Shown piece after piece: positions 17,122 to 64,000 of a stretch of 64,000 nucleotides of DNA. A model generated the notes under the pieces. That model was not told where the DNA came from, did no database searches, and saw only the letters and a list, made by a program, of their open reading frames with translations. Both the position numbers and the translations under genes were made by a program. Numbering within the stretch: position 1 is the first letter of the stretch; every line of letters begins with the position of its first letter. This DNA is from a virus, in IMG/VR virus record IMGVR_UViG_3300023196_002944, positions 1 to 64,000 of that record. The stretch is one strand, 5' to 3'.

Positions 17122-17126
17122 ATGAT

Positions 17127-17546
17127 ATGCCTGAGAAACTTCTTGAGTTCCTGAACATCAAAGAATGCGCTATGCCGTTCATGCTTGCAGCGAGTACCCA
17201 TACCAATCGACTCAACTTTCCTCGACTCCTAGAACTGGTCATCATCGTCGCATCGTCGGCGTTTGCCTCATACCAGATCATTGAGTATCGGCTTGATAAC
17301 GCAGCGGCAGACATCGTTACGTTGGAAGCGAACTTGCTAACCACCAATGCCAACTTCATTAATCTGGAGCGTACGTTGACTTCTACGAAGCTGGCGATGT
17401 CCGACCGATGGACTGGAGCTGACGAAGCTGATTACCAGTACGCCCACCTCAAAGAACATCATGCCATGATGAAAGAGGTTACGGGAGCCATTGAAAAGAT
17501 GGCTGACCGCATACGAGCGGTAGAGATTAATAACGGAGGCAGGTGA
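17127..17546 (+). CDS. Single-pass membrane/coiled-coil protein (lysis region), 139 aa
   Basis: One hydrophobic segment lies around residues 34-52 (LLELVIIVASSAFASYQII). A long helical, probably coiled-coil C-terminal part follows (residues 58-135). This layout is seen in phage holins, i-spanins and Rz-like proteins. It sits 1 base before the amidase gene. I infer a lysis accessory (spanin-like or pinholin-like) but cannot tell which. Confidence 0.5.
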   Translation: MPEKLLEFLNIKECAMPFMLAASTHTNRLNFPRLLELVIIVASSAFASYQIIEYRLDNAAADIVTLEANLLTTNANFINLERTLTSTKLAMSDRWTGADEADYQYAHLKEHHAMMKEVTGAIEKMADRIRAVEINNGGR

Positions 17547-36800: not shown

Positions 36801-39800
36801 CGTCCAGCGAAGGCTCCTGTTACTACAGCCCCGCGCCGTGCACCTAGTAACCAAGGTGCCAAGGGCCGGGCAGCGCGGAAACGGAGAAACGAGGCAGCGA
36901 GGCAGACTGCGCCTGCTACATCGCAGGAAGCGGCTCCGCTGCATAAGGTCGCGCCTGCAAGTGTCGCCGCCGGCACGCCGGGGATTGCCTATTCAGGTGG
37001 TGCCATAGGTTCTGACTCTGTGTGGTCTGCTGCGCTGGCTGACAAAGACGTGCCGACTGTACACATGTCGTTCGCTGGCCACAGCATAAATAAGAATGCA
37101 CGCGGCCAACGTGTAGAGTTGACTCCTGAACAACTGACTGAGGCCGATGCAGCGTACAGACGTGCACGTGGTCGCCTTAATAGAAGCGGCAAACCCAGTA
37201 CTGACTTTGCTACCAATCTGCAGCGCCGCAACTATTTCCAAGTGCGCGATGCCGATGCGGTCTACGCCGTAGGTGAACTCATCATCGACAAGCGAGGGGC
37301 TGTGTCTGGTGGGACAGGGTATGCCGTTGAGTACGCCGTGCAGATGGACAAGCCTGTATTCCTGTTTGATCAGAAGCAGAACCGGTGGTTCAGCATCACC
37401 AAGGGAGCGCAGAACAACGTCGTCAAGCCTGCGGAAGTCACTCGACTGGAAGGCGACACTGTTGCGCTGATTGGCACGCGGAAGATCAGTAAGCAGGCCA
37501 AGGAAGTCATCTACACGCTGGTAGATAACACCTACAGTGTCGACCGAGGCAATGCCCCCGGTCCCACAGATGCCATGGCTGATGGTGTAGCACCAGAAGA
37601 TGCAGGTGTAGGCCCGATCCAAAAAGATACGCCCGCTGTAATTGCGGTCATGAACAGACTCAATTCACTCTTTGGCAAAGTCGAACTCAGCGACGGAGCC
37701 TATGGCAAAGGGTTAATAGCCGCAGTCAGTAAACATCTGCTGACTGACGCTGCAAATGCCAAGGGAATCCTCACGGTCGTCGAAGAGTACACGCAGAACT
37801 TTGTTACGGACCACATCTTCGATAGCCCGAAGGCGTTAATCGGCGTGCCTCTTATTGGCCTCGACGCCCAGTTCTTCAGTTCTCAATTTGCAACTTGGAA
37901 CCGCAGTAATACTTTTGAGAAACTGAATAAGGCGTTTCCGATGAATCGGAACCGCATGGTGTCAATCAACACACGCCCAGAATACAGCCTCCACGAATCG
38001 TCTGACCTCAGATACCGCGATACTTATGTGTTTGAACTTAGAAAGCCTGATGCGCGGGAATTCCGATTGACGAAACTGGCACGAAGCTGGGCAAACATGC
38101 TTGGCCTGAAACGATATGCAAAGCAGATAACAGTTACGCTTCGTGACCCAGAAGATAGCCGCGATGACGCGTATCTTTGGGGCATATATGGCATGGCCTA
38201 CACCAATGAGGCCATCATTTACATCAATCCCACACTGCTCGACCCAGCAGTGTTAAAAGACAATGCTGCGCTGAAAGGTGTTCTCGCTCATGAATTCGGG
38301 CATCTCGTTCATCGCGCAGTGATCGATGGGATGCTAGAGACGGCAGAAGGGGACTACTTCACTCTGCTAAAAGAAATGCGGCAGTCCTACCGTACGTTTG
38401 CAGGGTTGAAACGTGGCAGCGGCGTTGTGACTGACGGCCTGACAGATCGTGCCAATAAACTGATGGATGAGTTTAATGGCCTGCAGTCAGCACTCGTAGC
38501 TGGCACTTTGAATGATGCCGAATTCGCAGCCGCTCTCAAACAGCTTACGCCATTCATAGATACCGTCTCACAGCAGCGTGGCTTCGTTGCATCACAAGAA
38601 GTTGTAGATACGTTGCGCGTTGAGCGAGGCCAAACGCTGGCCCGCACTCCTGCCATGACTAGTTTCATACTGGCTGTGCAGAATGGTGATCCCATCACGG
38701 ATGCAATGCGAGAAAGCGCATTGAGTGATGCGCAGGATACGGTAAAGAATTTCATCTCTAGTTATATAATTAGCCAGCCCGAGTGGTATGCCGATCAAAT
38801 TGGGGCGTGGCTAAACACTAAGGAAGAGCCGAAGACAGTACTGGAGCGTTTCTTTGCCGGCCTCGCGGCGGCGATCAAGAAACTGTTTGGTCAGGCACCG
38901 CAGACGTCAGCCGACTTTGCTGGTAAGCCACCAGTCAATTCTGTCCAGAAGTTCATGGACAGTCTGCTGGCTACATCCCGACCAATTAAGTCCAAGCCTA
39001 AGAAGCATGTGTTCAATCAGCAAGCCGAAGCGGTGCTGGATGCCATCATTGAAGAGATTGAACGCGACCCTGTAGCCAAGATCGCTGTGACTACCGTCCT
39101 AGAAGGTGATGTCACGCGCATTGGGCCGAAGCGTTCTATTGAATGGCTGCGTAATCGGCTGAAGTTAATCTTTGATGGTACGAACGCCGAGATCGAAAAT
39201 GCAATCTGGGGTGCGTTCTATATCGTATCGATGGGGGACATGTACAACGAACTGACCCGCAACGATCCGCAGACAGACTGGGTGCCGGGCGAAGACTTGA
39301 TTGTGGCCGATGATGATGGTGGCAAGGGGTCACCGTGGCGCACCGGGTTTGTGAGTGTCATCAATAACATTCGTGGCAAGCACGGTCAGGTTGCCGGCAT
39401 CGACGTAGGATTCTCACTGAAGAGCATCTTCCCAAGCGGCTATGACAATAAAGGTATGGGAGCGCTGGTCAATAACCCGCGTCGTTTGCGCTCTGTCGTG
39501 GGCGGCATGCTGCCAACGGGTTACTACAACGCCCTGTCCGTAGCCTTGGAGCAGGCACGTCTGAAAATTCAGGCGGCTCCTGAGTACAACGCACAGGCCG
39601 AACGCATATATAAGAGTTTCCTAATAAACAAACGCGGCCTGCAGCGTGACTCCGAGAACCCGAATATCATTCATGTTCCAGTATCTCCGATGTTGTTTGA
39701 TGCACTGGACACCAAGCACAAGGCCAAGATCGATCAGTTCATTGCTGAACAGCAGCAGTGGGCCAAGGACAATAATGTCGAGACGGCCATGACGCGGGAA

Positions 39801-42800
39801 TCATTGATGGACCCACAGGGTCTGAACCAACTCTTCCTGACGTACAACCCCGACATGCAGCAGAAGCGTCAGGACGGCACGATGGAAGACCGTGCGTGGA
39901 CGTTCTCTCTCCGCACTCATCAGGGCACCGAACTGGCGTGGGTCTGGCATGAGAATCGGCATCGCCTGTTCCAGCAGGTTTTCGATTCCATGATCGATCA
40001 GGCCAAGAGCTACGCCAAGAATAAACTCGACACGGCTGATGAAGCCCACTACCTGCAGACCACATTGCAGTTCTTGGCTCCTGCGAAGACCACGCTCAAC
40101 TCCAAGGGCGAAGAGGTGCACACGCCCCCGCAGCCCATCGATCTGGGCGTTCGTGTGCTGGCTCAATACGGTCGTAGCTTTGATGGCGGTCAGCGACGTG
40201 GGATTGAATCGCCACAGCGTCATGTACTCAACCAAGAACGCTACCTTGCCAACGGCATCACCGCCCTACTGGATAACGGCTATGTGCTACTGAATGATCG
40301 CACGATGCCTGATGGCAAGGGCACAAAGCTTGTGCCACAAGTAGTAACCGACAAGATGGGCACGCGCTTCAGGGCTGACCTCATCGTTGGTTATGGCACT
40401 GGAATTCGTACCGCTCGTCGTCTGTCTGATGCGCTCAAGGCTGTGCAGAGAGAATCCAAACTGCACGATGAAGCTGCGTGGATCGAACGCAGCATCGAAC
40501 GCAGCATGGAACGTGTCGCCGGCCTGAAGGGCAAAGTTGCTCAGTACAAACGCATCAAGGCGCGGGCAAAATCCATTGCGTCAGCCAAGCCAAAGCTGAA
40601 AACCGCTATGGATCGTCAGTTACGCAAGGCTGAGACGGCGATTACCAATGAGATGGAAGCCGTGTTCACCATCCTTCACGACGAAGAGACGCCGTACAGT
40701 GCGGCACTCAAGGAAGGCATGGACAAGGTGACCATGGAGTTCCTTGAAACGGATGACATGATCGCTCTGCGCAACGAAGCGATGCAACGATTGCAGGCGG
40801 CTCAGGCAGAGAACAAACGCGTCGATATTGGTGCCCAGCTAATTGAGAATCGTGTTGGGCAGGCGGAACTGCATTCAATCTATGAAGGCATCAAGACCAA
40901 ACTAGAGACCTTAGCAGGAATCGTCGACGTCACAACGGATGAAGTGGCCAAGGCCACGCACGCTTACAACGAGTCGAACACCAAGGCGAATCTCGACAAG
41001 CTGATGAAGGCACGTGCCCATCAGGGGCTGGCCATCTTGCGGCAGATGCAGCAAGTGGACCCGGATACGATCACAGATGAGTTCATCGAACAGACTATCC
41101 AATCCGACGCGTTTCTTGGTACTACGCGGCTGTACGAATTCAAGCCAGAGACGAAGCGCCAGAAAGCAGAAGTGAAAGAACGCGTCATCGATATGCAACG
41201 TACGCGTTCTGCGGCCACACTCGCGCTGCATAAGTTCAGGGATGATGTTGGCAATGCTCTGAAGAAGCGACTGATTGAACTCGACCATAAACTGGCTACG
41301 ATGACTGGTGTTGCTAACGGCCTCGTCCAGTGGGCTTCGCAGAACGGTATCCTGATCGAAGATTTGGAGGCCGAAGGGCAGATCACAGTTGACGATGACA
41401 AGAAGGTCAGTGCGGCATTCAAAGAACTTCAGAAACATGAAGCGCGAGTGCAGTCCCTGCAGGCTAAAGTCGATGGGATGAATGCCGTGGTTACCCCGCC
41501 TGCCAAACTCGCAGAAGCGAGTGCCCAGTTACGTGAGGCTCAGGAACATCGGGAAGCCGCCTTTGCAGACGCTACGGTGCAGCGCCGAGGCAAACGCGTT
41601 CTGGATATGCGTGCATTGGAGACAGCGTATGGCAAAGCAGCCGGTGCCTACACCATAGCCAAGCGCAAGGCGTTATCTGAACTGCAGGTATATCTGGTAG
41701 AGAACGATATCGACACGGGCGTAGATGCTGAATCTACACTGATCAGCCAAATGTCGATTCCATATGAAATACAGCGCCTGCAGCGGATGCGGCGTGAGTA
41801 CATACGCGTCACGCAGATAGATGCTTTCCGTCATGCAAGCATCCCCTTGCTGGACCAAAAGATTGCTGGCATCACGACTCAACTTGAGTCCCTGTATCTA
41901 TTGAACTCTATGCGAGTTTCGGAGATTCGCAATCTGATGCCCTTAAATCGGGTACTGCGTTCCCGGTTGGCTTCGTTAAAGCGTGAAGGGGCTCCGTTCT
42001 GGAATGGGCAGATGGCTATCGACGAAGAAGCCGAAGCTGTCGCCGCGCTGCATGAAGAAGTTGCTGAACATGAGCAGTACGGCATGGATGTCGTCGATCA
42101 TAATTTGGCGCAGACAGAAACCGAAGCGGGCATGACCTTCAGCACAGATGTCGCGCTCGACCCTGACACCGGGAACCCTCTGGCGATTCAGCGATTCCGT
42201 GAGCCACGCCAGCTAGGTTCCTTGGCTTTCGAGAATGGGTTCCTGCCTGAGAACACCACGAAGGGTAAGGGGGCACGGAAGACAGTCACGAATCCCATGC
42301 TGGAAACAATCCAAGCCATCTATCGCGTGAGTGGTCTGGACCGGTTCGGCATCGACTTCAACTTTGGGTTCAATGAGAAGGAAGGCATGCCCAGTCAGGT
42401 TACGATCTGGACAGAGCCGGGAATGCGAGAGCATAAGCGCAAGATCGAAGTCACGATCAGAATCGACCCGGCGCTGAAAGATAACCCCGAGGCGATGATC
42501 CGTGATATCGCCCATGAAATGGCCCACGTCACCAAGGACGCGCTACTGGGAGTCGAGGAATCGAAGAACTCCGTAGTGTGGAAGAAGTTGATGAAGGGCT
42601 ACAAGCAGTACGCGGCTGACTGGAAGGGAGAGGGTCCAGCCCCAATCTTTGAAGAGTGGTTTGCTGATCGCTTTGCTGCATGGCTGGTGGATTCGACGAT
42701 GCGGGGACGTAAGTCCACCATCAAGAATGATCCGAAGACCGTTGTTGGCAAGTTCATGCGGCGGCTGGGTGACACGATCAAATCCATACTCAAGATATCC

Positions 42801-45191
42801 AACCCGAAGAAATCCGAAGAGGATGTGGTCTACGAATTTCTCGACATGCTGGCCGTGATCACGACCCGCGACACCATGCCTGACAAAATCTATGACGAAT
42901 TCCGCAACCAGAACGAAATGTTCGATGAGGTATACAACCGACTGCGTGGACGGATGGGCCAATTCCAAGAGGGGCAGGTGTCTTACTTTGCAGATGGCGG
43001 GCGTAGCGGCCCAGTCGTAGGTCGCGTGGACGAAGTGACGGCGCGGAGTCGTGTCTTCGCCATGGCATTCAGTGGAGCCAAGAACGTATGGAAGGATACG
43101 CGAGGATTCATTGCTGAGATTTATGACCGCTACATTCGGTGGGCGAACCGCTCACTGTGGTTGCAGAAGAACTCAGATGGCAAGATCATCAAGGCCATTC
43201 GCGCTTTCGGGTTGCAGTGGTCTGATATGCCCGGCCACGCCCGTGGTGATCGTCACCCAGTGACGGGGGAGTGGCATGACAACGTAGTCTTCATCACCCG
43301 TGCTGATGGCCGAGTGGAGACAGTCAAGATCGGTGATGAAACAATCAAGCATTCCATTGACCGGGAACGCGGCCAGTGGGTCGAGCTTAAACTGACAAAG
43401 TTGTTAGAAGAGCATGGCAATACCGAACAGCACGATCAGGTGCTGAAGTATCTGCAGTCTGAGACGCCACTAAGCAGCATTCGCAATGCTGAAGTACGTG
43501 CACATGTCTCAGCGTTCCGTGATTATCTGGATTCCTTTTACGACGACTACATCGGTGCGATGTACGAAAGCCGTCAGGGCAGCGGTGCCCCGGTGGAGTA
43601 TGGCATCAAACGGTGGAATGCGAATTACTTCCCTCGCGTCCTCGACCCCCAGATTCTGATGGAGAACAGGGATGAATTCATCACCGACGTAGTGACAAAA
43701 CTCGGGTTCACACGTCAGGGAGCCGAGGAATTGTGGCAGTCGTACATGGGCAACGACAATGTTGACGCGTGGTTCGATCCTGACCGCACCTTTGCTCCGG
43801 GCAACCCCCAAGGCAAGAGTCGTCAGCAGCAGTTGGCCGACGCCGCACCGGTGCTGGAGAAGTACATGGCGAAGAGCATGACCCACGTCATGCAGAGCTA
43901 CATGCACGCCATGATCAAACGGGTTGAGTACGAGCGCCGGTATGGTGGCGTGGCCATGACTGAAGCAGGCACGCCGTACTGGGATCACGATGTAGGGTTC
44001 CAACGCTTGATGCGGCTGGCGAATGAAGAGGGCGCGTCGGCCGCGCAGTTAAAATGGTGGTCTGAAGTGAAGGAAGGTTACCTTGGCCGTTTGGGTCAGG
44101 ATATCCCGCCTGCGCTGCGCCGGTTCTACTCCCTGACGCAGACGTTTCTGAACTTCCTGTTGCTGCCGTTCGCCACGCTGTCATCGTTCGTCGATCTTGC
44201 CAATGTGATCGTGCGGTCCAACGGTTCGGTGACCTTCAGCCTTACTCACCTTCGTGATGCTTTCAAGGCCGTGCGTGAGAAAGGCGACAACGAGCTATGG
44301 AAGCTGGCCCAGACTCATGGTTTGGTGGTCGACAATGTCATGCATTCAGTGCTGGCTGAACGATTTGATACGGGGTATATGACCCCTATCTACCAGAAAA
44401 TGAACGAGAAATTCTTCCGCTGGATCGGATTGCACCAGTGGACGGCCGCGATGCGCATGTATTCGTGGCAGATGGGCAAGGATTTTCTCCATAAACACGC
44501 TACAAACCGTACGGAGTATGGCGATAGCTACCTTACAGAACTGAATCTCAAGGCCGAGGATGTCCTGAACTGGTTCCATGAAGGCCAGAAGACGTGGCAG
44601 GTGACTCCGGGGGCTGAGAACGATGCTCTGGCCCGCAAAGTGACTATTGCCCTGAATCGGTTCGTCTCGGAGTCCATATTTCGCCCTGACGCCTCTCAGC
44701 GGCCGAAGTGGGCCTCTGACCCACACTGGATGCTTGTATGGCACCTGAAGCAGTTTGGCTACTCATTCTGGGCCAATCTGGTGCATCGGTTGATCGATGT
44801 AGCCAAGACGAGGCCCGGAACGCTGGCTAAAATGGCCGCATTCCTACCTTTGCTGGCCGTTCTGCCGTTTGCCATGGTAGGCATGGAGTTGCGGAATATA
44901 ATCCAGTACGGAGCATCTGACGAGACCCCTTACAACCATCAGAGGGGAGCGGCTGGGTACATGGCCGAGCTAGTAGAGCGGTCAGGCGCTCTGGGGCCAA
45001 TGCAGTTCCTCTGGGATGCCATGGAGTCACAGGAGCGAGGTAAGCTCTTCATCCTGTCTTTGCTTGGGCCTGCCGCGACAATGACAGAAACAGCACTCAC
45101 CAAGGAACTCAGCACGGTTATCCCTCGCTTCACACCGGGGATTTCGGTGATGCCTCCCTTGCGGCACTGGCTGACAGAGCAGGTGCAATAA
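33861..45191 (+). CDS. Giant multidomain (polyvalent) virion protein, 3776 aa
   Basis: Domain order by eye: residues 1-110 form a nuclease-like fold of the staphylococcal type, with D21 and putative catalytic R31, E39 and R73. A Gly/Ala-rich hydrophobic region spans about 250-450. Pro-rich and AKPA linkers follow. A SLOG/YpsA-like Rossmann domain lies at about 1040-1170 (YSGGAIGSD, GGTGYAVEYA). Zincin motif HEFGH is at 1477-1481 with EWYAD at 1641-1645. HENRH is at 2030-2034. Long coiled coils span about 2150-2780. A second zincin is at HEMAH (2885-2889) with EEWFAD at about 2931-2936. The last 900 residues match C-terminal regions of other giant phage proteins (NANYFPR). Polyvalent proteins of this type are packaged and injected to counter host functions; that role is inferred. 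GAGG precedes the ATG. Confidence 0.75.
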   Translation: MANDRRFSATNALTPRTIDADTIDLRGRRHRLFGVGASEMSTASGREATRRASEFLSRPGVTTRTHGTGYFGRALSEAIGPDGENLNARLIEEGLAISRDYTGVGNIYPDATAKSRREGEVPSRAAQFLEARAAQRGDVATKFDEKYVPPEATVTQALGVGVRSGVDSLQAGAYGMASALASIISPPADQQPSDDSAIERFGRRKRNDFENGFIRNSIEASQVHVAQSLKELTEGEDTTFGDWARWAAFNVGVGAPSLVAMAATSGTGFAAGAGLRALSLGVARSLTKKGMSRATAKQMSKGIMTNLPKYGARMGAMMGSGVPQGGQIYETVKNDYGVDSVGTALTTAVITGGLDVVGLEYVLRGLLPDPKKYLSESIAVNLAKMMAGSSARGILAEAPVEALQEVTALVAEGIHDPDELIMEKLTSEEGRWRILEAAAAGAVFGGVFGGSGGVMSYGLQGLPTKQKKAKTPAPDAPPPDAPPPAIEPPDAPPPAGAPPAGAPPAGAPPIGIVSPGEGPPPDDGVPPIGVDPRNPTAPPIGLTPTEEGRPAPETVEVSERATDVEGKHTFSKPREAMEFAKNVKKLYPAAQVKQTRLEVEVKFPIDEAPTDTGVDPRAAKPTEAPTTTSPVAETPAPEAPKTEAPVAAPVEFNEGDKKRGHKTKQEDHEVALADGSRHVVKGRTVVPPEGFEDVRLIVHKIVGGKEWKVTELETGYGIGGTSATMKEAVANAKKKLKDVGRTEFDLAFARTQEKIAGKEAPKTEAPKTEAPKVPRTPEEFKAQQEQRRVESQERAEKEIAEVEAAGGKARKSKGGDKRGIMEFADRDKFVAYLKGKGREDFIIENILRGQSGPFTHLMEYAQTEHFTAKPAAKPAAKPAAKPAAKPAAKSEVKFLSNEDKDALIAVEGVVSKLPQVLRSRIVNVVAKSLGIGAINEGQVIEWANRTYGTNFNIEAKPSDVKKPAAKSEPHEADPGVNPRARPAKAPVTTAPRRAPSNQGAKGRAARKRRNEAARQTAPATSQEAAPLHKVAPASVAAGTPGIAYSGGAIGSDSVWSAALADKDVPTVHMSFAGHSINKNARGQRVELTPEQLTEADAAYRRARGRLNRSGKPSTDFATNLQRRNYFQVRDADAVYAVGELIIDKRGAVSGGTGYAVEYAVQMDKPVFLFDQKQNRWFSITKGAQNNVVKPAEVTRLEGDTVALIGTRKISKQAKEVIYTLVDNTYSVDRGNAPGPTDAMADGVAPEDAGVGPIQKDTPAVIAVMNRLNSLFGKVELSDGAYGKGLIAAVSKHLLTDAANAKGILTVVEEYTQNFVTDHIFDSPKALIGVPLIGLDAQFFSSQFATWNRSNTFEKLNKAFPMNRNRMVSINTRPEYSLHESSDLRYRDTYVFELRKPDAREFRLTKLARSWANMLGLKRYAKQITVTLRDPEDSRDDAYLWGIYGMAYTNEAIIYINPTLLDPAVLKDNAALKGVLAHEFGHLVHRAVIDGMLETAEGDYFTLLKEMRQSYRTFAGLKRGSGVVTDGLTDRANKLMDEFNGLQSALVAGTLNDAEFAAALKQLTPFIDTVSQQRGFVASQEVVDTLRVERGQTLARTPAMTSFILAVQNGDPITDAMRESALSDAQDTVKNFISSYIISQPEWYADQIGAWLNTKEEPKTVLERFFAGLAAAIKKLFGQAPQTSADFAGKPPVNSVQKFMDSLLATSRPIKSKPKKHVFNQQAEAVLDAIIEEIERDPVAKIAVTTVLEGDVTRIGPKRSIEWLRNRLKLIFDGTNAEIENAIWGAFYIVSMGDMYNELTRNDPQTDWVPGEDLIVADDDGGKGSPWRTGFVSVINNIRGKHGQVAGIDVGFSLKSIFPSGYDNKGMGALVNNPRRLRSVVGGMLPTGYYNALSVALEQARLKIQAAPEYNAQAERIYKSFLINKRGLQRDSENPNIIHVPVSPMLFDALDTKHKAKIDQFIAEQQQWAKDNNVETAMTRESLMDPQGLNQLFLTYNPDMQQKRQDGTMEDRAWTFSLRTHQGTELAWVWHENRHRLFQQVFDSMIDQAKSYAKNKLDTADEAHYLQTTLQFLAPAKTTLNSKGEEVHTPPQPIDLGVRVLAQYGRSFDGGQRRGIESPQRHVLNQERYLANGITALLDNGYVLLNDRTMPDGKGTKLVPQVVTDKMGTRFRADLIVGYGTGIRTARRLSDALKAVQRESKLHDEAAWIERSIERSMERVAGLKGKVAQYKRIKARAKSIASAKPKLKTAMDRQLRKAETAITNEMEAVFTILHDEETPYSAALKEGMDKVTMEFLETDDMIALRNEAMQRLQAAQAENKRVDIGAQLIENRVGQAELHSIYEGIKTKLETLAGIVDVTTDEVAKATHAYNESNTKANLDKLMKARAHQGLAILRQMQQVDPDTITDEFIEQTIQSDAFLGTTRLYEFKPETKRQKAEVKERVIDMQRTRSAATLALHKFRDDVGNALKKRLIELDHKLATMTGVANGLVQWASQNGILIEDLEAEGQITVDDDKKVSAAFKELQKHEARVQSLQAKVDGMNAVVTPPAKLAEASAQLREAQEHREAAFADATVQRRGKRVLDMRALETAYGKAAGAYTIAKRKALSELQVYLVENDIDTGVDAESTLISQMSIPYEIQRLQRMRREYIRVTQIDAFRHASIPLLDQKIAGITTQLESLYLLNSMRVSEIRNLMPLNRVLRSRLASLKREGAPFWNGQMAIDEEAEAVAALHEEVAEHEQYGMDVVDHNLAQTETEAGMTFSTDVALDPDTGNPLAIQRFREPRQLGSLAFENGFLPENTTKGKGARKTVTNPMLETIQAIYRVSGLDRFGIDFNFGFNEKEGMPSQVTIWTEPGMREHKRKIEVTIRIDPALKDNPEAMIRDIAHEMAHVTKDALLGVEESKNSVVWKKLMKGYKQYAADWKGEGPAPIFEEWFADRFAAWLVDSTMRGRKSTIKNDPKTVVGKFMRRLGDTIKSILKISNPKKSEEDVVYEFLDMLAVITTRDTMPDKIYDEFRNQNEMFDEVYNRLRGRMGQFQEGQVSYFADGGRSGPVVGRVDEVTARSRVFAMAFSGAKNVWKDTRGFIAEIYDRYIRWANRSLWLQKNSDGKIIKAIRAFGLQWSDMPGHARGDRHPVTGEWHDNVVFITRADGRVETVKIGDETIKHSIDRERGQWVELKLTKLLEEHGNTEQHDQVLKYLQSETPLSSIRNAEVRAHVSAFRDYLDSFYDDYIGAMYESRQGSGAPVEYGIKRWNANYFPRVLDPQILMENRDEFITDVVTKLGFTRQGAEELWQSYMGNDNVDAWFDPDRTFAPGNPQGKSRQQQLADAAPVLEKYMAKSMTHVMQSYMHAMIKRVEYERRYGGVAMTEAGTPYWDHDVGFQRLMRLANEEGASAAQLKWWSEVKEGYLGRLGQDIPPALRRFYSLTQTFLNFLLLPFATLSSFVDLANVIVRSNGSVTFSLTHLRDAFKAVREKGDNELWKLAQTHGLVVDNVMHSVLAERFDTGYMTPIYQKMNEKFFRWIGLHQWTAAMRMYSWQMGKDFLHKHATNRTEYGDSYLTELNLKAEDVLNWFHEGQKTWQVTPGAENDALARKVTIALNRFVSESIFRPDASQRPKWASDPHWMLVWHLKQFGYSFWANLVHRLIDVAKTRPGTLAKMAAFLPLLAVLPFAMVGMELRNIIQYGASDETPYNHQRGAAGYMAELVERSGALGPMQFLWDAMESQERGKLFILSLLGPAATMTETALTKELSTVIPRFTPGISVMPPLRHWLTEQVQ
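35284..35391 (+). repeat. 15-bp tandem repeats encoding a Pro-rich linker
   Basis: GCCGCCTGCTGGTGC-type units occur in tandem and are flanked by DAPPP-coding units. They give a flexible Ala/Pro hinge between the hydrophobic segment and downstream domains of the giant protein. Confidence 0.8.
36462..36521 (+). repeat. Five exact 12-bp tandem repeats (AKPA linker)
   Basis: Five consecutive GCGAAGCCTGCT units encode an Ala-Lys-Pro-Ala linker. Identity at DNA level indicates recent slippage; copy number is likely to vary between isolates. Confidence 0.9.
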
Positions 45192-46241: not shown

Positions 46242-46537
46242 TATGAATCCTTTATCTTGTAGTTGCCGTCTCCTACAGTTTGGTTAAGTAGGAATACCCA
46301 GCGTTGGCGGATAGGGTCGAGTTCATTGTGCAATGCTTCGCTGTACATTTTGGCAGCGAGGTCTTGTCGTTGAAGGATTTGTCGGCCAGTGCGCATTTGG
46401 TCGATGGTGATGGTTTGCTCATAGTATGATAAGAAAGTGTCTTTGAGCGGTGCAGGTACCATGAGTGAGCCGTAACGGACGAAGGCTGGAGCCGTAGCAG
46501 CGGCAATCATACCTTTGAGGAAGTTACGGCGTTTCAT
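46241..46537 (-). CDS. Protein with a Tat-type signal, 98 aa
   Basis: The N-terminus MKRRNFLKGMIAAATAPAF has the twin-arginine consensus (RRNFLK) and a short hydrophobic region, as in substrates of the host Tat export pathway. The remainder (residues 35-95) is helical and charged. If exported it would act folded in the periplasm, or remain anchored by its signal. It overlaps its neighbours by 1 base downstream and 14 bases upstream. Function unknown. Confidence 0.65.
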   Translation of the reverse strand: MKRRNFLKGMIAAATAPAFVRYGSLMVPAPLKDTFLSYYEQTITIDQMRTGRQILQRQDLAAKMYSEALHNELDPIRQRWVFLLNQTVGDGNYKIKDS

Positions 46538-56685: not shown

Positions 56686-56844
56686 TTAGTGTTCTCGTTT
56701 GATGGGTATATCTTTGTCATCAATGTTTTTGCTGATAGTATCTGCAATGTCGTGCAGTTTGTCTGCCAAGTCCTCCTTATCATCAGCATGTACAGTAATA
56801 TCCAGTTTTAGTCGTCGTCGTTTTTGCTTTTTCTCGTCAGTCAT
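56686..56844 (-). CDS. Small charged protein, 52 aa
   Basis: Begins at the ATG inside the end of the Prim-Pol gene (8-base overlap) and stops two bases before the 739-residue gene. The product has an Arg/Lys-rich N-terminus (EKKQKRRRLKLDI) and an acidic helical middle (ADDKEDLADKLHDIADTI). No family is recognised. Tight packing supports expression. Confidence 0.55.
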   Translation of the reverse strand: MTDEKKQKRRRLKLDITVHADDKEDLADKLHDIADTISKNIDDKDIPIKREH

Positions 56845-57682
56845 GTGTGTGTCTTCCGGCAAGCCCGTAGGGTGTGGTTATACCTGCTGCTTTCAGGCAC
56901 GTGGTTGTGGGTTCGTGGAAATGTGGGCATTTCCATTGGCTGTAAATATTACGACAAGTAAGTGGGAACGAAACATTTTTGTAGATGTTGTTGGTGTGAC
57001 GATAGTGGTGGCCGAGACTGAGAAATTCGGGGGTCGCATCGGCTGCTAGATAGGCATTAGATGCGTAAGCACGAGCAGTTGCGTAACGATTTTCCCAGTC
57101 TGGATCATTGCGTTTGTTTTGGAACCAGCGAATGAAATCGCATCGCATTAATTCGTCTTGATGTATGGTCATAGGTTCAAATGGTGCTACAGGGATGACT
57201 GAAGCTGAAGGGGATGGAAGTGATTTCATAAACTCACGTATCCAGTAAGGTTCTGAATACACAACTGGTTGGGCGTAAAGCATTACAATATGCGGGATGT
57301 CGATGCGAGGGTAGACATTTAGCCCGCGCCGATGTCCTTCTTCCCATTTGAAGTAGTAGTGACGCCCGCCACTGGGGGTTTTTGTGTACTTGAACCAGAG
57401 CCACGGGATGCGGGAGATTGGCCTGAAGTCTTTGTTGACGGGAGTGTCAAAGTCGATGACGGTGATGCCGCTGGCTTTGCCGGTGAGGACGCAGTAGTGG
57501 CCTGTGTCGAATTTGGTGATGCTGCTCCAGAGTTCTTCTGGACTTGGTGGCTCCTGCTGATAGTGTTTCCAGCGGATTGCTGGCCTTTTTTCTTGTCTGA
57601 TCGCTGGGAGAATGATCCATTTTTCCCTGAAGATTTTACGCCGGATGTACTCGCCATCGATGGGTGTGAGGTGGTCTGCCAT
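56837..57682 (-). CDS. Stand-alone Prim-Pol (AEP) enzyme, 281 aa
   Basis: It matches the bifunctional DNA primase/polymerase N-terminal domain of the AEP superfamily. VIDFDTP gives DxD at D77 and D79, TPSGGRHYYF gives the sGGxH motif with H108, and IDIP near residue 128 gives the third acidic residue. Thus it can start strands and may extend them. The C-terminus has four Cys/His residues (CPHFHEPTTTC) that could bind zinc. GGAG sits seven bases before the ATG, inside the neighbouring gene. It is separate from the larger primase-helicase at 60317. Confidence 0.8.
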   Translation of the reverse strand: MADHLTPIDGEYIRRKIFREKWIILPAIRQEKRPAIRWKHYQQEPPSPEELWSSITKFDTGHYCVLTGKASGITVIDFDTPVNKDFRPISRIPWLWFKYTKTPSGGRHYYFKWEEGHRRGLNVYPRIDIPHIVMLYAQPVVYSEPYWIREFMKSLPSPSASVIPVAPFEPMTIHQDELMRCDFIRWFQNKRNDPDWENRYATARAYASNAYLAADATPEFLSLGHHYRHTNNIYKNVSFPLTCRNIYSQWKCPHFHEPTTTCLKAAGITTPYGLAGRHTHD

Positions 57683-58254
57683 GATTTTCTCTCCGGCAAG
57701 GCTTCAGCTACGACCAAGGAGTCGAAGGGATTAGTTGCTGCGGGTTTGCTTGTGATAACCAATTCATCATCCTCTGCTGAGAGGAATCCCAGCGGTTCGT
57801 TGGTTTTGGTGTCGAAGAGGGCACCGCAGTCGATGCAGATGGACACATCTTTTAGGAACTCGGGTGGGTTGGGGGGAATCATGAGATTGTGGGGACAAGG
57901 AGGTGTCTCTGGTTCTACTGCAGGTTCGAAGACAATTTCCACCTCTTCCTCATCGTTGTCATCATCAACGAGTGCGATAGGAGGGGGAAAATCGATAGAC
58001 TCTCCTGCGAGTCCGAAAAGAGCAGCACCGTCGACGTAATGGTCAATGTTGGTTTTCTCCCCTCGGGAACGTGCCATTTTTACGCAGACCATGAACATCC
58101 AGCCTTCTTCTTCAGTGAGTTTGTGTTCACTGTAAGCATTGAAGATGGCAACAGTGCGTTTCATGCTGCGTTCAGCGTGGATGTCGCGCTCGGCAGCGCG
58201 GTCTTCAATTTGATCGCCTGCAATTTCGAGGATGGTAAAGGCTGATGTCTTCAT
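57319..58254 (-). CDS. DUF6378-like protein with overprinted C-terminus, 311 aa
   Basis: Residues 20-90 (ERDIHAERSMKRTVAIFNAY, then FMVCVKMARSRG, then DHYVDGAALFGLAGES) fit the DUF6378 family of phage proteins. A possible zinc site (CPHN, CIDCG) follows. From about residue 192 the protein runs out of frame through the first 121 codons of the Prim-Pol gene and becomes low-complexity (Ser, Thr, Pro, Lys, Ala), as expected of a frame that is not constrained. The intact N-terminal domain is probably real; the long C-terminal overlap may be translated or could reflect a lost stop. GGAG precedes the ATG by five bases. Confidence 0.6.
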   Translation of the reverse strand: MKTSAFTILEIAGDQIEDRAAERDIHAERSMKRTVAIFNAYSEHKLTEEEGWMFMVCVKMARSRGEKTNIDHYVDGAALFGLAGESIDFPPPIALVDDDNDEEEVEIVFEPAVEPETPPCPHNLMIPPNPPEFLKDVSICIDCGALFDTKTNEPLGFLSAEDDELVITSKPAATNPFDSLVVAEALPERKSWQTTSHPSMASTSGVKSSGKNGSFSQRSDKKKGQQSAGNTISRSHQVQKNSGAASPNSTQATTASSPAKPAASPSSTLTLPSTKTSGQSPASRGSGSSTQKPPVAGVTTTSNGKKDIGAG

Positions 58255-59811: not shown

Positions 59812-60357
59812 TTAAGGCTGCGCTTGCATCCACTCAATGGCTTCTTCAAAATAGTTGGAACCAATAGAACGTCGTATTATTTTGTCGACGTAGAGAGTTT
59901 CAGTCATGTCGCAGGTTACAGAAGTGAGTATTTCTGTGCCTTCTGGGATGATACAAAGTGCCAGTCCTACATCATGACCCCAGAAGCAATACTCTTTTGC
60001 TTTGGCTAAACTTAAGAAGCCAAAAAATCCGAAAGTTGAATCAAATGGAGATGAGTATTCAAAGCCGGGGGCGTAGTGCACATCTTCTCCCGTAGGGTGG
60101 TTTACTATTTTGCCCATCATGCGCTGATTCCTTTTGGCATTGCACCATTTGAGGATGGAGTCAATAACAGCGAATCTGCCTGACAGGAAGAAGGAGTCGA
60201 GGTCATTTGAAAAGGTGAACCCTCCGCGTTGCGAGGGAGAGTAGTAAGACCAGTATTTAGACCTTCTTCCTTTGGTTCTTCGAATTTCAACCCATTTGTA
60301 GAAGGGGGTGGGGCAGTTAGTTATGCGCGGCATACTCGTCTTCAGCATTAAGCTCAT
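59812..60357 (-). CDS. Hypothetical protein, 181 aa
   Basis: I use the ATG at 60357, with GAGG nine bases upstream, giving a 41-base overlap with the primase-helicase gene. The middle (GFFGFLSLAKAKEYCFWG, then ALCIIPEGTEILTSV) resembles phage proteins of unknown function with an FFGF...A...Y signature. A later start at 60333 is possible. No activity can be inferred. Confidence 0.5.
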   Translation of the reverse strand: MSLMLKTSMPRITNCPTPFYKWVEIRRTKGRRSKYWSYYSPSQRGGFTFSNDLDSFFLSGRFAVIDSILKWCNAKRNQRMMGKIVNHPTGEDVHYAPGFEYSSPFDSTFGFFGFLSLAKAKEYCFWGHDVGLALCIIPEGTEILTSVTCDMTETLYVDKIIRRSIGSNYFEEAIEWMQAQP

Positions 60358-62623
60358 GGGTGGTGTCCTCTGTCTTCCAGTCAATTATCATTCCGCGATG
60401 GGTTTCGTCATCGACACGCAAGACTCTTATTTTTACGAAGTGGTGTTTCAGCATGCGTGAGAAGTTGGACGGTGAGAGGTCTTTGCCTCCCTGAATGTAG
60501 TGATAGACCTTGTAGAGTTCGTCGCGTTTTACTTTGGATGGCCGTGAATCGGCGGCATCAGCTATCCACTGATCGATGATCTTCTTGCTCTGTTCAAACT
60601 CAAGCATCTTGTTGAACGGGGGTTCTGCCATGCCAAGGTCAGTGAAGTAATCCAAATCGCATGCGTGCAGGGCATTGAAGAAATGATCGACTGAGTTCTG
60701 GGCAGCGAGGCGCATGTCCACCTTGGCTGAGTTGTCTGTGGCCATCATGACGCGCTGTTCATCGATCTCCAGATGCATGATGAAGCCCATGAAGTGGGCT
60801 AGCTCATGTTCGATCTGTTGAATCTCTTTTGTGGTAATGAGTAACCGGGCTTCTTGGCGTGCCGCAACGTGATGCCGGCGGTCAGATTCGGGGATAGCGA
60901 TGGCGTCGTGGTCGTTAGATGCGAAGATGATGCCGAAGTAAACAGGGACTTGGTATGGGTTGGTGCGCATGGGCCGAATTCGCCCCGTTGGCTCCGTGAT
61001 CATGTTTCTTATCTGATTAATAGTTTTTCGGTCGGAAATTCCGTCCAACTTAACTTCATCCACAAAGAGCAAGAGACAATACTCCATCCATTCATTAAAG
61101 GAATCTTTGAAATCTTGAACTGTGATAATACGGCAGTAGTCAGGGCCGAGGGTCGGAGCAATGATATTGTGGAATAGTAAACCCTTGCCTGTTCCTTCCA
61201 CTCCATGCAAAACAATGGCGGTGCCGGGCTTGGTTCGCCTTTGATATATCCACGCAAGCCAGTGCAATAGGGTTGTATAAGATTCCTCGTCAGCGGTGAC
61301 ATGGTGCATGATCCTTTCTATGGTAGCGGGCAGGTGATCTTGTTTCGGGGGCACGTTGCGCATGTACACAGTCGGGACGTAACGGTTGGCACGCTGTTTC
61401 TTCATGTCGAGTAGCTTGGAGTCGTGCGGATCGAAGCAATACTCCCAATCAGGTATGGGATCGGGTAGCTGGCTCCCGTGTTGCACCATGAAGTCGTTTA
61501 AACGGTCTCTGGCCCCGGTTCTGGCAAGCAGGAGACTGGGCACGTCGGGGTCATAGATGCCGTTCCAGTAGCTGTCTGATTTGAAATCACGAAACACGAT
61601 GGGCATGCGGCCGGTGGGTTCTTGGTGTCGTTGTATCTGTTCCCAGTAATCCGGCAGGAAGGTCTCGGTCAGGTAGATGGGCTCTCCCTTGAAGTTCAAA
61701 ATAAATCGCGGGTTCTCTTTCGGGTGCCAGTAACCGTAGCTGTCACCACCGTTGATATTGAGGTACACAAATCCGCGCTCTGAGCGTATGGGTCCGGTGA
61801 TGTGCGCACGAGACGGGTTGGTCATGACCCGGTGCCCCATCATTGATTTGAAACGGCAGGTTTTGGGTTTCAGACCGGCCCGCTTGCGCACCTTGTTGAC
61901 CGTCGCCTGCACGCGTTCCTCGGTTTCACTCATGGAGCGCGGATCAATATCGATCGATGCGCGTCTCTGGCCCTGATTCACCTGCACAATCCGATCCGCA
62001 ATGTCGATGTTGGGGTCGATGCCCACGATCACCGGCGGTGCGATGTAGAGCAGCTTGTCGTTCTGGCAGGTGGTGGTGTCGACGGGGTATTTGAGCGTGG
62101 TGCCATTCACCGAGAGGGCCAGTTGCGATTCCAGCCCTTCGTCGAGGTTGATGCGCTGCAGCCACGATTTGAGCATCGGGGCCGGGATTGGCGCGTCGAG
62201 CAGGAAGAATACGTGGGCAGATAGGCCGCGTGAGAAGCCGTGAGAGGCGCTGTATTGGATGATGTGGTCTACGTCATGGAGTTCAGAGGGCAGGGCGCGC
62301 TTGATGAAGTCTGGTACGTCTGTGAAGCCTCTGGCCCGGTCAATGTCGATACACAGCCATTCAGTGTCGTCTTCGGTGCGTGTCGCGCCGGCCCGAGACT
62401 CATTGGCAAGGCTCCGATGGAGGGTGCCTTTGAGTAAGCAGTGGCCCATATCGGCGTGTGCCCTGATTGCCGCTTCGAAGGTGTCGAGGTCGTCAACTTC
62501 GTGATGGAAGGAGTTGAAGTCGCGGATGTGTGGGTAAGGGTTCTTGGTGACGTGGCCGTTTTCGACGGTGATGGTTTTTGTCAGCGGGGTTTTGTCCGCT
62601 GCCTGAAGAAAAAAGAGCTTCAT
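60317..62623 (-). CDS. AEP primase-polymerase fused to SF3 helicase, 768 aa
   Basis: The N-terminal 220 residues are an AEP Prim-Pol domain: CIDIDRA gives D93 and D95, GLSAHVFF gives S135 and H137, and a later acidic residue lies in KYPVDTTT. The C-terminal half is a superfamily 3 helicase: HGVEGTGKG (Walker A), LLFVDEVK (Walker B) and GIIFASND (motif C). This domain pair is that of the NrS-1 phage replicase, in which one protein both primes and copies DNA while unwinding it. It starts at the ATG at 62623, after GGAG, rather than the longer frame to 62695. It lies just downstream of the repeat region described at 62624. Confidence 0.85.
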   Translation of the reverse strand: MKLFFLQAADKTPLTKTITVENGHVTKNPYPHIRDFNSFHHEVDDLDTFEAAIRAHADMGHCLLKGTLHRSLANESRAGATRTEDDTEWLCIDIDRARGFTDVPDFIKRALPSELHDVDHIIQYSASHGFSRGLSAHVFFLLDAPIPAPMLKSWLQRINLDEGLESQLALSVNGTTLKYPVDTTTCQNDKLLYIAPPVIVGIDPNIDIADRIVQVNQGQRRASIDIDPRSMSETEERVQATVNKVRKRAGLKPKTCRFKSMMGHRVMTNPSRAHITGPIRSERGFVYLNINGGDSYGYWHPKENPRFILNFKGEPIYLTETFLPDYWEQIQRHQEPTGRMPIVFRDFKSDSYWNGIYDPDVPSLLLARTGARDRLNDFMVQHGSQLPDPIPDWEYCFDPHDSKLLDMKKQRANRYVPTVYMRNVPPKQDHLPATIERIMHHVTADEESYTTLLHWLAWIYQRRTKPGTAIVLHGVEGTGKGLLFHNIIAPTLGPDYCRIITVQDFKDSFNEWMEYCLLLFVDEVKLDGISDRKTINQIRNMITEPTGRIRPMRTNPYQVPVYFGIIFASNDHDAIAIPESDRRHHVAARQEARLLITTKEIQQIEHELAHFMGFIMHLEIDEQRVMMATDNSAKVDMRLAAQNSVDHFFNALHACDLDYFTDLGMAEPPFNKMLEFEQSKKIIDQWIADAADSRPSKVKRDELYKVYHYIQGGKDLSPSNFSRMLKHHFVKIRVLRVDDETHRGMIIDWKTEDTTHELNAEDEYAAHN

Positions 62624-63132
62624 GGCGCAGTCTCCAAGGGGGTGGGCAGCTAGTGTGATACCACGTGGTTCATAAGGGCACAAGTGAGCAATCACTAACT
62701 TGGGTTTATTATATTCGAATATTAAGAGGTGCTTTTATAGGTGGGGCGGTTCAGCCTGCGAGGAAAAACGGTTACGGTGGTACAGTGCTTCGCTAAGTGC
62801 TTGATCGATCAACAATGTTACAGGGAAACAGGGAGACTAGGCTTAAGTTACACTTATGTTACACTTTTTATTCTTATAAGTATATGAATTATATACTATG
62901 TTACACTTATATAGTTATATTGTAAGTTAATTAGTATTAACCGGGGAATACATAAAAACTGTAATGTAAGGGTCTAGTGTGTGCTACGTCCCCACCGGGG
63001 GGAAATCGCAGATTCACTACCTTTTTAACTACGTATGTGTAACTTACCTTTGGAATCAAAGGCTTAGAAGAGAAATAAGTGTAACAAAAGGGCTAAAAAA
63101 GTGTAACATGTTACACTTTTTTGTGTAACATG
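62624..63132. promoter_or_regulatory. Putative origin/operator with phased GTTACAC repeats
   Basis: No gene is seen in this 509-bp AT-rich gap. GTTACAC or its complement occurs at 62847, 62858, 62900, 63037, 63079, 63101, 63110 and 63123 (first base of each core). Spacings of 11, 42, 42, 22 and 22 bp keep sites on one face of the helix. AAGTGTAACATGTTACACTT (63099-63118) is the core of a 28-bp perfect palindrome at 63095-63122. Two further palindromes lie at 62711-62722 and 62801-62812. TATAAT hexamers for leftward transcription occur at 62888-62893 and 62708-62713, without clear -35 boxes. Confidence 0.7.
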
Positions 63133-63603
63133 CTAAATGTCATCTCCGTGGAGACGGATTTCGGGCTGGTAGGTGCGCGCCAATGTTACACATCTGTCGA
63201 TGGTCTTCCAACTGATCTGGTAGCGTTTGTACATTACGCTCAGAGGGATGCCGGCGTCGAAATCGGTGGCTATTCTGACGGCGCGCTTCAATCTCACCTC
63301 CCTGCGCGCGTCCCTGCACATGAGGAATACTGTGTTGCGTCCCAGTTGCACAAGCGAGGCGATTTGGTTGTAGGTGAACCGCCATTTCCAACCGATGGTG
63401 GGGGGCTCGGTTTTGATCGATAAAGCGATGACCCGTTCTTTATAGAGGGGGTTGACTTGGCCGTAATGCTCTTTGTCACCGATGCGTTTAGGTACGACTT
63501 TTGGCCCCCAGTTGGTGTCTCTAGTCAGCCGCTGCCAGCGTGGTTTCGGTGGGCTTTTGCTGAGACGCGAGGGTTTGATAGAGGTGGGCTTGTGCGCGGA
63601 CAC
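63133..63603 (-). CDS. DNA-binding protein with two helix-turn-helix motifs, 156 aa
   Basis: The C-terminal half holds two likely HTH units (YNQIASLVQLGRNTVFLMC and SVMYKRYQISWKTIDRCVTL). The N-terminal half is Pro/Arg/Lys-rich. The GTG at 63603 has AAGGA upstream but overlaps the exonuclease by 83 bases, so the true start may be further in. It lies directly upstream of the repeat region, and one more repeat copy lies inside its own coding sequence (63184-63193). It is the best candidate for the repeat-binding initiator or repressor (inference). Confidence 0.65.
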   Translation of the reverse strand: MSAHKPTSIKPSRLSKSPPKPRWQRLTRDTNWGPKVVPKRIGDKEHYGQVNPLYKERVIALSIKTEPPTIGWKWRFTYNQIASLVQLGRNTVFLMCRDARREVRLKRAVRIATDFDAGIPLSVMYKRYQISWKTIDRCVTLARTYQPEIRLHGDDI

Positions 63604-64000
63604 GGATGAGTTCCTTTTGTGAGAGTTGCACGATCTTGGCCTGTCGGATGGTGTCGGTCAGAGCGTGGTGTTTTGGCCCCTCTACTTGGGGGTTTGGACC
63701 GCCACCGTTGGGCCATGCTGCATCCTTGAGAGTGCGAAGGCTGCGGGGCTGATAGAACCTGAAGGGCCAGCGGGCTTTAACGGCGTGCATGTTGCAGCGA
63801 ATGATGGCGACATCGAAGTCAGGATCGTTTGCCCAGACATGCAGTACCTTGAATGGGAGGTTCGATAACCACATGGCGAAATTGTGCATGGCTACAGCGA
63901 GACTGGGTCCACCTTTTTCAATTTCAGCGCGTGCTTCGGTTGACTGTTCTTTCCACCACTTGATGGTGGACTCAGTTACACGCATGCCTTTGTCGATTCC
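63521..64000 (-). CDS. DEDDh 3'-5' exonuclease, 5' partial
   Basis: The frame stays open to the window edge with residues GIDKG before the first ATG, so the N-terminus with the first DxE motif is missing. The visible part has TIKWWKEQSTEAR, WANDPDFD, FYQPRSLRTLKDA and HHALTDTIRQA. The His-x4-Asp ending is that of the Rv2179c-like/T4 DexA-like 3'-5' exonucleases. It would trim 3' ends during replication or repair. The long C-terminal helix overlaps the HTH gene. Confidence 0.8.
   Translation of the reverse strand, partial: GIDKGMRVTESTIKWWKEQSTEARAEIEKGGPSLAVAMHNFAMWLSNLPFKVLHVWANDPDFDVAIIRCNMHAVKARWPFRFYQPRSLRTLKDAAWPNGGGPNPQVEGPKHHALTDTIRQAKIVQLSQKELIRVRAQAHLYQTLASQQKPTETTLAAAD

What the first reader, a model, noticed from the sequence alone, without database searches (positions are those of the whole stretch)
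62846..63193. Helically phased GTTACAC iterons and 28-bp palindrome
At least eight copies occur between 62846 and 63130 plus one in the HTH gene at 63184. Spacings of 11, 42, 42, 22 and 22 bp repeat the 10.5-bp helical period. This is typical of iteron-type origins or cooperative operators. A two-HTH protein lies next to it and the Prim-Pol helicase gene starts just beyond, so an initiator-origin-replicase set is likely.
Basis: partly seen in the sequence, partly recalled or inferred. Interest (0 to 1): 0.75.

Follow-up and report, generated by a model that had tools for sequence, protein, structure and literature searches.

The report
Repeat-array replication origin of a phage
Next to its copying-enzyme gene this phage carries a cluster of eight or more short GTTACAC repeats, very probably the site where copying of its DNA begins; the same repeat marks the same spot in unrelated phages, among them one whose copying enzyme has a known start signal lying inside the repeats.

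Summary
Eight exact GTTACAC copies lie at 62847-63129, a ninth at 63185, and a perfect 28-bp palindrome at 63095-63122. Same-strand spacings are 11, 42, 42, 22 and 22. Chance is excluded.

It is most likely an iteron replication origin. The array lies 223 bp upstream of a D5/SF3 (DUF5906) primase-helicase gene, with repeats flanking an 85% AT core. The only solved structure that the helicase family matches is phage NrS-1 primase-polymerase (E=1.7e-55). NrS-1 has 11 GTTACAC copies directly after that gene. The enzyme's published priming motif, TTTGGTTA, occurs once in its genome, inside that array. Large GTTACAC clusters elsewhere usually adjoin D5 or DUF3987 primase-helicases (15 of 19 with at least nine copies), helically phased. 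The annotated putative origin of Streptococcus phage Sfi11 has the same layout with GTTAC repeats.

The 63133 protein has no detectable relatives. In 65 DUF3987 loci the iteron sequence tracks the helicase's own C-terminal HTH (partial r 0.48; 0 of 2000 permutations). The window helicase ends in a probable winged helix.

Against: the closest named relative, KPP25, lacks repeats, and binding is untested. Verdict: new member of a known kind.

The parts
62847..62853 (+). iteron GTTACAC, left arm
62858..62864 (+). iteron GTTACAC, left arm, next to the AT-rich core
62817..62823 (+). variant iteron GTTACAG; other origins also carry GTTACAG near the core
62801..62812 (.). palindrome TTGATCGATCAA beside the variant iteron; TTGATn0-5ATCAA occurs in 5 of 24 origin regions (shuffle mean 0.1)
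62865..62924 (.). AT-rich core (85% AT over 60 bp), candidate unwinding element
62900..62906 (+). iteron GTTACAC inside the AT-rich core
63037..63043 (-). iteron GTTACAC, right arm
63047..63062 (.). inverted repeat CCTTTGGAATCAAAGG between right-arm iterons; resembles similarly placed elements in Sfi11, L077 and L034 by eye
63079..63085 (-). iteron GTTACAC, right arm
63095..63122 (.). perfect 28-bp palindrome AAAAAAGTGTAACATGTTACACTTTTTT formed by two iterons (63101- and 63110+)
63123..63129 (-). iteron GTTACAC, right arm, outermost intergenic
63185..63191 (+). iteron GTTACAC inside the HTH ORF
60317..62623 (-). D5/SF3 primase-helicase (DUF5906), NrS-1 and KPP25 type; start ATG at 62623 by homology
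60383..60538 (-). C-terminal winged-helix-like domain of the helicase, proposed iteron reader (pLDDT about 81-91 over most of it)
56837..57682 (-). separate Prim-Pol (PF09250) gene of the same replication module

Best explanation
The array at 62817-63129 (plus 63185) is the phage's iteron-type replication origin. Two facing arms of GTTACAC iterons, helically phased, flank an AT-rich core. The phage's own D5/SF3 primase-helicase, encoded 223 bp away, would bind the iterons through its C-terminal winged-helix domain, assemble as rings on the two arms, open the AT-rich core and start primer synthesis there. Shown: the repeats, their phasing and orientation, the AT core, the helicase family, and recurrence of the same iteron and layout beside homologous helicases. 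Inferred: that this helicase binds these repeats, that replication starts here, and the ring-assembly and opening steps.
For: (1) The helicase profile's only PDB relative is the NrS-1 phage primase-polymerase (E=1.7e-55). NrS-1 carries 11 GTTACAC in about 310 bp directly after that gene. The NrSPol priming motif TTTGGTTA (PMC8718748) occurs once in the NrS-1 record, inside this array, within GTTACACTTTTGGTTACAC; PMC7102993 had suggested those sites as the origin. (2) A three-iteron pattern hits 81 viral stretches against 3 for its reversed control. Of clusters with at least nine GTTACAC per 500 bp, 15/19 have a D5 or DUF3987 primase-helicase in the fetched locus, most within 600 bp; with 3-4 copies, 5/88. 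(3) Spacings are phased at about 10.75-11 bp across families. (4) Facing arms around a core of 72-97% AT recur. The annotated putative rep_origin of Streptococcus phage Sfi11 has this layout with GTTAC repeats directly after its D5 primase gene. (5) In helicase-anchored loci chosen without regard to iterons, GTTACAC is enriched only beside the gene: DUF3987 2.6/kb in the 600 bp downstream against 0.08 for permuted 7-mers; D5 0.63 against 0.13. 65 of 74 DUF3987 loci have a 7-mer repeated at least six times beside the gene, and its sequence tracks the helicase C-terminal HTH after controlling for the rest of the protein (partial r 0.48, 0/2000). Closely similar helicases (L313-L318 against L319-L325) that differ in the C-terminal HTH have GTTACAC and GTTTAAA arrays respectively. 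(6) Helicase homologues L013 and L015 keep TTACAC repeats at the same place. (7) Precedents: SCCmec Cch2 binds AAGTG iterons next to its gene with its C-terminal domain, as does SaPI Rep (PMC7581432).
Against: Helicase homologues KPP25, phiA008, L011, L012, L014 and L016 show no array upstream. Only 4/80 D5 and 14/74 DUF3987 loci use GTTACAC itself. The window array is on the 5' side of the gene, most others on the 3' side. The arms are about 130 bp apart and include a GC-rich stretch. GC skew shows no turn here. The C-terminal model matches winged helices only weakly (best Foldseek E 0.16; NrS-1 chain probability 0.66, TM 0.47). The covariation evidence comes from DUF3987 helicases with an HTH, not from the window's winged-helix type. 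Recognition-helix comparison among D5 loci was suggestive at most. The TTTGGTTA priming motif is not in the window array. No binding or replication data exist.
Confidence: 0.74

Rival explanations
1. The repeats are a cooperative operator: the 63133 HTH protein (or another regulator) binds them and controls transcription of the leftward helicase operon, without origin function.
For: The array lies upstream of the helicase gene and directly downstream of an ORF with a probable C-terminal HTH. Palindromic and phased sites suit a dimeric, cooperative repressor. One site lies inside the HTH ORF.
Against: No sigma-70-like promoter was found in 62500-63700. The HTH protein has no relatives, yet the same array recurs beside helicases without it. 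In most loci the array is 3' of the helicase gene, where it could not be its promoter operator. NrS-1's priming motif lies inside such an array.
Confidence: 0.12
2. Dual function: the array is the origin and also the autoregulatory operator of the helicase operon, with the initiator (or the 63133 protein) repressing its own operon when bound.
For: Here the array lies 5' of the gene, where its promoter would be expected. Autoregulation through iterons is common in plasmid Rep systems (established knowledge).
Against: No promoter match; no expression data.
Confidence: 0.3
3. The 28-bp palindrome is a bidirectional intrinsic terminator between the HTH gene and the helicase operon, and the other repeats are incidental.
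For: A terminator-like stem is called at 63135-63104 on the - strand. It sits at the 3' end of the HTH gene.
Against: The stem has few G-C pairs, and the scan finds about as many such sites in shuffles (2 found, mean 1.1, sd 1.1). It does not explain the other iterons, their phasing, or the same palindrome core without a T-run in L019.
Confidence: 0.05

Closest known systems
Nitratiruptor phage NrS-1 replication locus (AB746912, NrSPol)
   Same: Homologous helicase domain (E=1.7e-55); the identical iteron GTTACAC in 11 copies adjoining the gene; AT-rich
   Different: Array on the 3' side; NrSPol's TTTGGTTA priming motif lies in the NrS-1 array but not in the window array; the window phage also has a separate Prim-Pol gene
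Streptococcus phage Sfi11 putative origin (NC_002214 rep_origin 35254-35557, gp504)
   Same: D5-type primase with an origin adjoining its gene; facing GTTAC arms around an AT-rich core
   Different: Iteron is GTTACT/GTAAC, 3' of the gene; helicase only distantly related
SCCmec Cch2 and SaPI Rep iteron origins
   Same: D5/Primase_C-type helicase reads short iterons next to its own gene with its C-terminal domain; the Cch2 iteron AAGTG is contained in AAGTGTAAC (PMC7581432)
   Different: Three 5-nt iterons in SCCmec, nine or ten 7-nt here; primase is a separate polymerase there; DNA binding shown there, not here
Satellite phage P4 alpha protein and origin
   Same: Primase-helicase whose C-terminal domain binds iterons (established knowledge; compared in PMC4234260)
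   Different: P4 iterons are a different sequence (from memory GGTGAACAGA) and its primase is Toprim-type
pRN1 ORF904 (Prim-Pol, SF3 helicase, winged helix)
   Same: Same domain plan (PMC4234260)
   Different: pRN1 uses a large stem-loop, not iterons; that paper proposed stem-loops as general for this domain plan, which these arrays contradict
Pseudomonas phage KPP25 ORF056 locus (Kochitakasuvirus)
   Same: Closest named homologue of the helicase (37% identity)
   Different: No iteron array in its 141-bp upstream gap

Membership tests
Iteron origin read by a D5/SF3 primase-helicase (P4 alpha, SaPI Rep, Cch2 kind) | Three or more short near-identical repeats in one noncoding region | tested here: met
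   8 exact copies in 283 bp, 0/500 shuffles
Iteron origin read by a D5/SF3 primase-helicase (P4 alpha, SaPI Rep, Cch2 kind) | Array adjoins the primase-helicase gene | tested here: met
   Helicase start 62623, first exact iteron 62847
Iteron origin read by a D5/SF3 primase-helicase (P4 alpha, SaPI Rep, Cch2 kind) | Gene encodes a D5/SF3 (DUF5906) helicase | tested here: met
   PF19263 E=5.1e-17; NrS-1 primase E=1.7e-55
Iteron origin read by a D5/SF3 primase-helicase (P4 alpha, SaPI Rep, Cch2 kind) | C-terminal DNA-binding (winged-helix) domain | tested here: inconclusive
   AF2 mean pLDDT 76.8 with helix-helix-strand-strand order; Foldseek matches weak
Iteron origin read by a D5/SF3 primase-helicase (P4 alpha, SaPI Rep, Cch2 kind) | AT-rich unwinding region between iteron arms | tested here: met
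   85% AT at 62865-62924, left arm +, right arm mostly -
Iteron origin read by a D5/SF3 primase-helicase (P4 alpha, SaPI Rep, Cch2 kind) | The helicase binds the repeats and replication starts there | not testable with these tools
   Needs gel shift and origin mapping
NrS-1-type PrimPol replicon | GTTACAC array beside a homologous helicase | tested here: met
NrS-1-type PrimPol replicon | Priming motif TTTGGTTA inside the array | tested here: not met
   In the window TTTGGTTA occurs only at 46279 and 53432
NrS-1-type PrimPol replicon | Archaeo-eukaryotic primase domain fused N-terminal to the helicase | tested here: inconclusive
   Motif-like residues by eye only; Pfam finds Prim-Pol in a separate gene at 56837-57682
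Operator array of the 63133 HTH protein | Adjacent DNA-binding protein of a recognisable family | tested here: inconclusive
   No family hit, poor model with one probable HTH
Operator array of the 63133 HTH protein | Co-occurrence of that protein with the repeats in relatives | tested here: not met
   No relative found while the repeats recur elsewhere

The most novel reading that the evidence does not exclude
GTTACAC is a recurrent, possibly ancient origin word of D5/PrimPol-type phages. It serves twice in one array: as double-stranded docking site for the helicase's C-terminal domain and, once opened, as template start signal for the primase domain. The NrS-1 TTTGGTTA motif overlaps an iteron, and NrSPol's second site GTG is the start of GTGTAAC. 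That would explain why unrelated phages keep the same 7-mer.
Probability: 0.2. Interest if true: 0.8.

Novelty: new member of a known kind. Interest (0 to 1): 0.6.

Why it matters
It gives a sequence-readable origin for a large and poorly studied class of phage replicons. It connects the biochemically studied NrS-1 primase-polymerase to an iteron array that the passages of the two NrS-1 papers seen here do not mention. It also suggests a testable recognition code between a helicase's terminal DNA-binding domain and its iterons. With that, origins of many uncultured phages could be predicted and initiator specificity tested in vitro.

Tried and rejected
A close relative of this phage's helicase or HTH protein in viral contigs: none found. 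The HTH protein in named phages and in PDB: none. A universal GTTACAC iteron for D5 helicases: rejected by the helicase-anchored scan (4/80) and by seven named D5 phages, in which Burkholderia AH2 has GGTCCGAA repeats instead and the other six show no clear array. A stable recognition-helix signature for GTTACAC among D5 winged helices: not convincing. Promoter in the region: none found. GC skew turn at the array: none. GTTACAC arrays in the literature: a text search gave only plasmid RA3 primers and unrelated hits. Clusters inside coding repeats (such as L108, L164, L184, L195) and the dispersed repeat of L053 were set aside as unrelated.

Full report
OBSERVATION. GTTACAC occurs exactly at 62847+, 62858+, 62900+, 63037-, 63079-, 63101-, 63110+ and 63123-, and at 63185+ inside the next ORF. 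A GTTACAG variant is at 62817. No 7-mer of any kind reached 8 copies in 500 dinucleotide shuffles of the region (maximum 5). The palindrome 63095-63122 is perfect over 28 bp. The left arm reads + and the right arm mostly -, so the arms face each other. The 60 bp at 62865-62924 between them are 85% AT, in a window that is 52% GC.

SETTING. The window is bases 1-64000 of a 72,654-base virus record. The array fills the gap between a leftward 156-aa ORF (63133-63603) and a leftward gene for a D5/SF3-type helicase (DUF5906, E=5.1e-17). Homologues place the helicase start at 62623. The closest named homologue is Pseudomonas phage KPP25 ORF056 (37% identity). The only solved structure that the helicase family profile finds is the C-terminal region of the NrS-1 phage primase-polymerase (E=1.7e-55). 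A separate Prim-Pol gene lies at 56837-57682.

RECURRENCE. The palindrome core AGTGTAACATGTTACACT matched only five contigs in the viral collection. All five carry 8-11 GTTACAC around it and belong to phages of about 30% GC; in those read, the neighbouring gene encodes a Prim-Pol-DUF3987 helicase ending in an HTH. A three-iteron pattern gave 81 stretches against 3 for the reversed control. Large clusters adjoin D5 or DUF3987 primase-helicases: 15 of 19 clusters with at least nine copies have one in the locus, against 5 of 88 with three or four copies. Whole-contig searches for the two families agree: in most positive contigs the gene lies within about 600 bp of the array. These contigs were chosen for the repeat, so the test was also run the other way round (see 'Who reads the repeats').

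NRS-1. Nitratiruptor phage NrS-1, host of the one solved homologue, has 11 GTTACAC, most followed by TT, within about 310 bp directly after its primase gene, and no other copy in the 6.8-kb stretch read. NrSPol starts primers at the template motif TTTGGTTA (PMC8718748). In the record that motif occurs once (17198-17205, - strand), within the array, as part of GTTACACTTTTGGTTACAC. The structural paper states two copies in the genome and proposes them as origin (PMC7102993); one exact copy was found here. This is the strongest link from the repeat to replication initiation. The motif itself is not in the window array.

LAYOUT. Printed side by side, many of these regions share a plan: outer iterons, a short inverted-repeat element, inner iterons (often GTTACAG then GTTACAC), an AT-rich core, and the mirror image. 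Core AT is 72-97% in 60 bp. The annotated putative rep_origin of Streptococcus phage Sfi11, directly after its D5 primase gene gp504, has the same plan with GTTAC repeats. Paenibacillus phage LincolnB and satellite Javan611 have it with other or variant repeats. Same-strand gaps are phased with a period of 10.75-11 bp (n=102, nR2=37). The window fits the plan loosely: left palindrome TTGATCGATCAA, GTTACAG, two GTTACAC, AT core with a third GTTACAC, then a right arm displaced by about 100 bp.

WHO READS THE REPEATS. Its single-sequence model supports one C-terminal HTH at best. The alternative is the helicase itself. Loci were fetched by helicase alone, without regard to repeats (80 D5, 80 DUF3987). 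GTTACAC is enriched only beside the gene, yet most loci do not use it (4/80 D5; 14/74 of the analysed DUF3987). Instead 65 of 74 DUF3987 loci carry some 7-mer, GTTACAC or another, repeated six or more times there. The repeat tracks the last 26 residues of the C-terminal HTH: partial correlation 0.48 after controlling for the rest of the protein, 0 of 2000 permutations, 40 distinct HTHs. L313-L318 and L319-L325 make a natural swap: helicases 86-100% identical over the matched length, with HTH SRQQIYRYIN or SRTQIYRYIA and GTTACAC, against SLQMIYKYMK (or SLTMVYKYLK) and GTTTAAA. In the window's helicase family the same end of the protein is a winged-helix-like domain (weak Foldseek support, with the NrS-1 chain among the hits). 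Among KPP25-type homologues, L013 and L015 have TTACAC repeats upstream of the helicase, L010 and L017 have ACTTTAGA repeats, and KPP25, L011, L012, L014 and L016 have none obvious. The helicase's C-terminal domain is therefore the best candidate reader. For this window that remains inference.

WHAT IS SHOWN AND WHAT IS INFERRED. Shown: the array and its statistics; the AT core; the helicase family; the same array next to a homologous primase-polymerase with a known priming motif inside it; family-wide co-location and phasing; HTH-iteron covariation in the DUF3987 family. Inferred: binding, unwinding and initiation at 62.8-63.1 kb in this phage.

COMPARISON. It works like the iteron origins of SCCmec Cch2, SaPI Rep and P4 alpha, where a primase-helicase reads repeats next to its own gene through its C-terminal domain (PMC7581432; PMC4234260). 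The Cch2 iteron AAGTG is contained in AAGTGTAAC. It differs from pRN1, where the same domain plan uses a stem-loop. Because binding could not be tested, membership is claimed at the level of organisation only. The finding is a new member of a known kind. The recurrence of one 7-mer across unrelated phages, and the NrS-1 link, are what deserve attention.

Noticed in passing
L313-L392 (DUF3987 loci): A likely recognition code between the C-terminal HTH of DUF3987 primase-helicases and their iterons: S-L/V/I-Q/T-M-(I/V)-Y-K goes with GTTTAAA, SLRMIYKY with ATTGAAC, several SR- helices with GTGTAAC, GTGTAAA, GTTTACA or TGTGCAA.
   Followed up: partly
L232:4003-4404 (NrS-1 record about 17055-17456): NRS1_29, annotated as a hypothetical protein, consists largely of the GTTACAC array and is probably not a gene.
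   Followed up: partly
L064 and L077 (contig IMGVR_UViG_3300035520_000467): The same contig carries two copies of the GTTACAC array in opposite orientation (5190-5404 and 19550-19786), one beside the helicase and one beside an integrase-like ORF.
   Followed up: no
L036, L039, L059, L082, L088, L093: Clusters of 4-7 GTTACAC lie upstream of a gene that looks by eye like a terminase small subunit, and no D5 or DUF3987 helicase was found on those contigs that were searched (not L059); function unclear.
   Followed up: no
L151:957-1233: Eleven GTTACAC in the two-arm layout between two apparently chromosomal genes of a Ruminococcus MAG, with no phage gene recognised beside it.
   Followed up: no
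window 33861-45191: A single ORF of 3776 aa on the + strand; after it gene direction reverses and GC falls from about 54% to about 46%.
   Followed up: no
window 56837-57682 and 57319-58254: The Prim-Pol ORF and a 311-aa ORF overlap by 364 nt on the same strand in different frames; possible frameshift or dual coding.
   Followed up: no
L393:4504-4994 (Burkholderia phage AH2): GGTCCGAA repeated about 9-10 times directly after the primase-polymerase gene, probably the origin of that phage.
   Followed up: no
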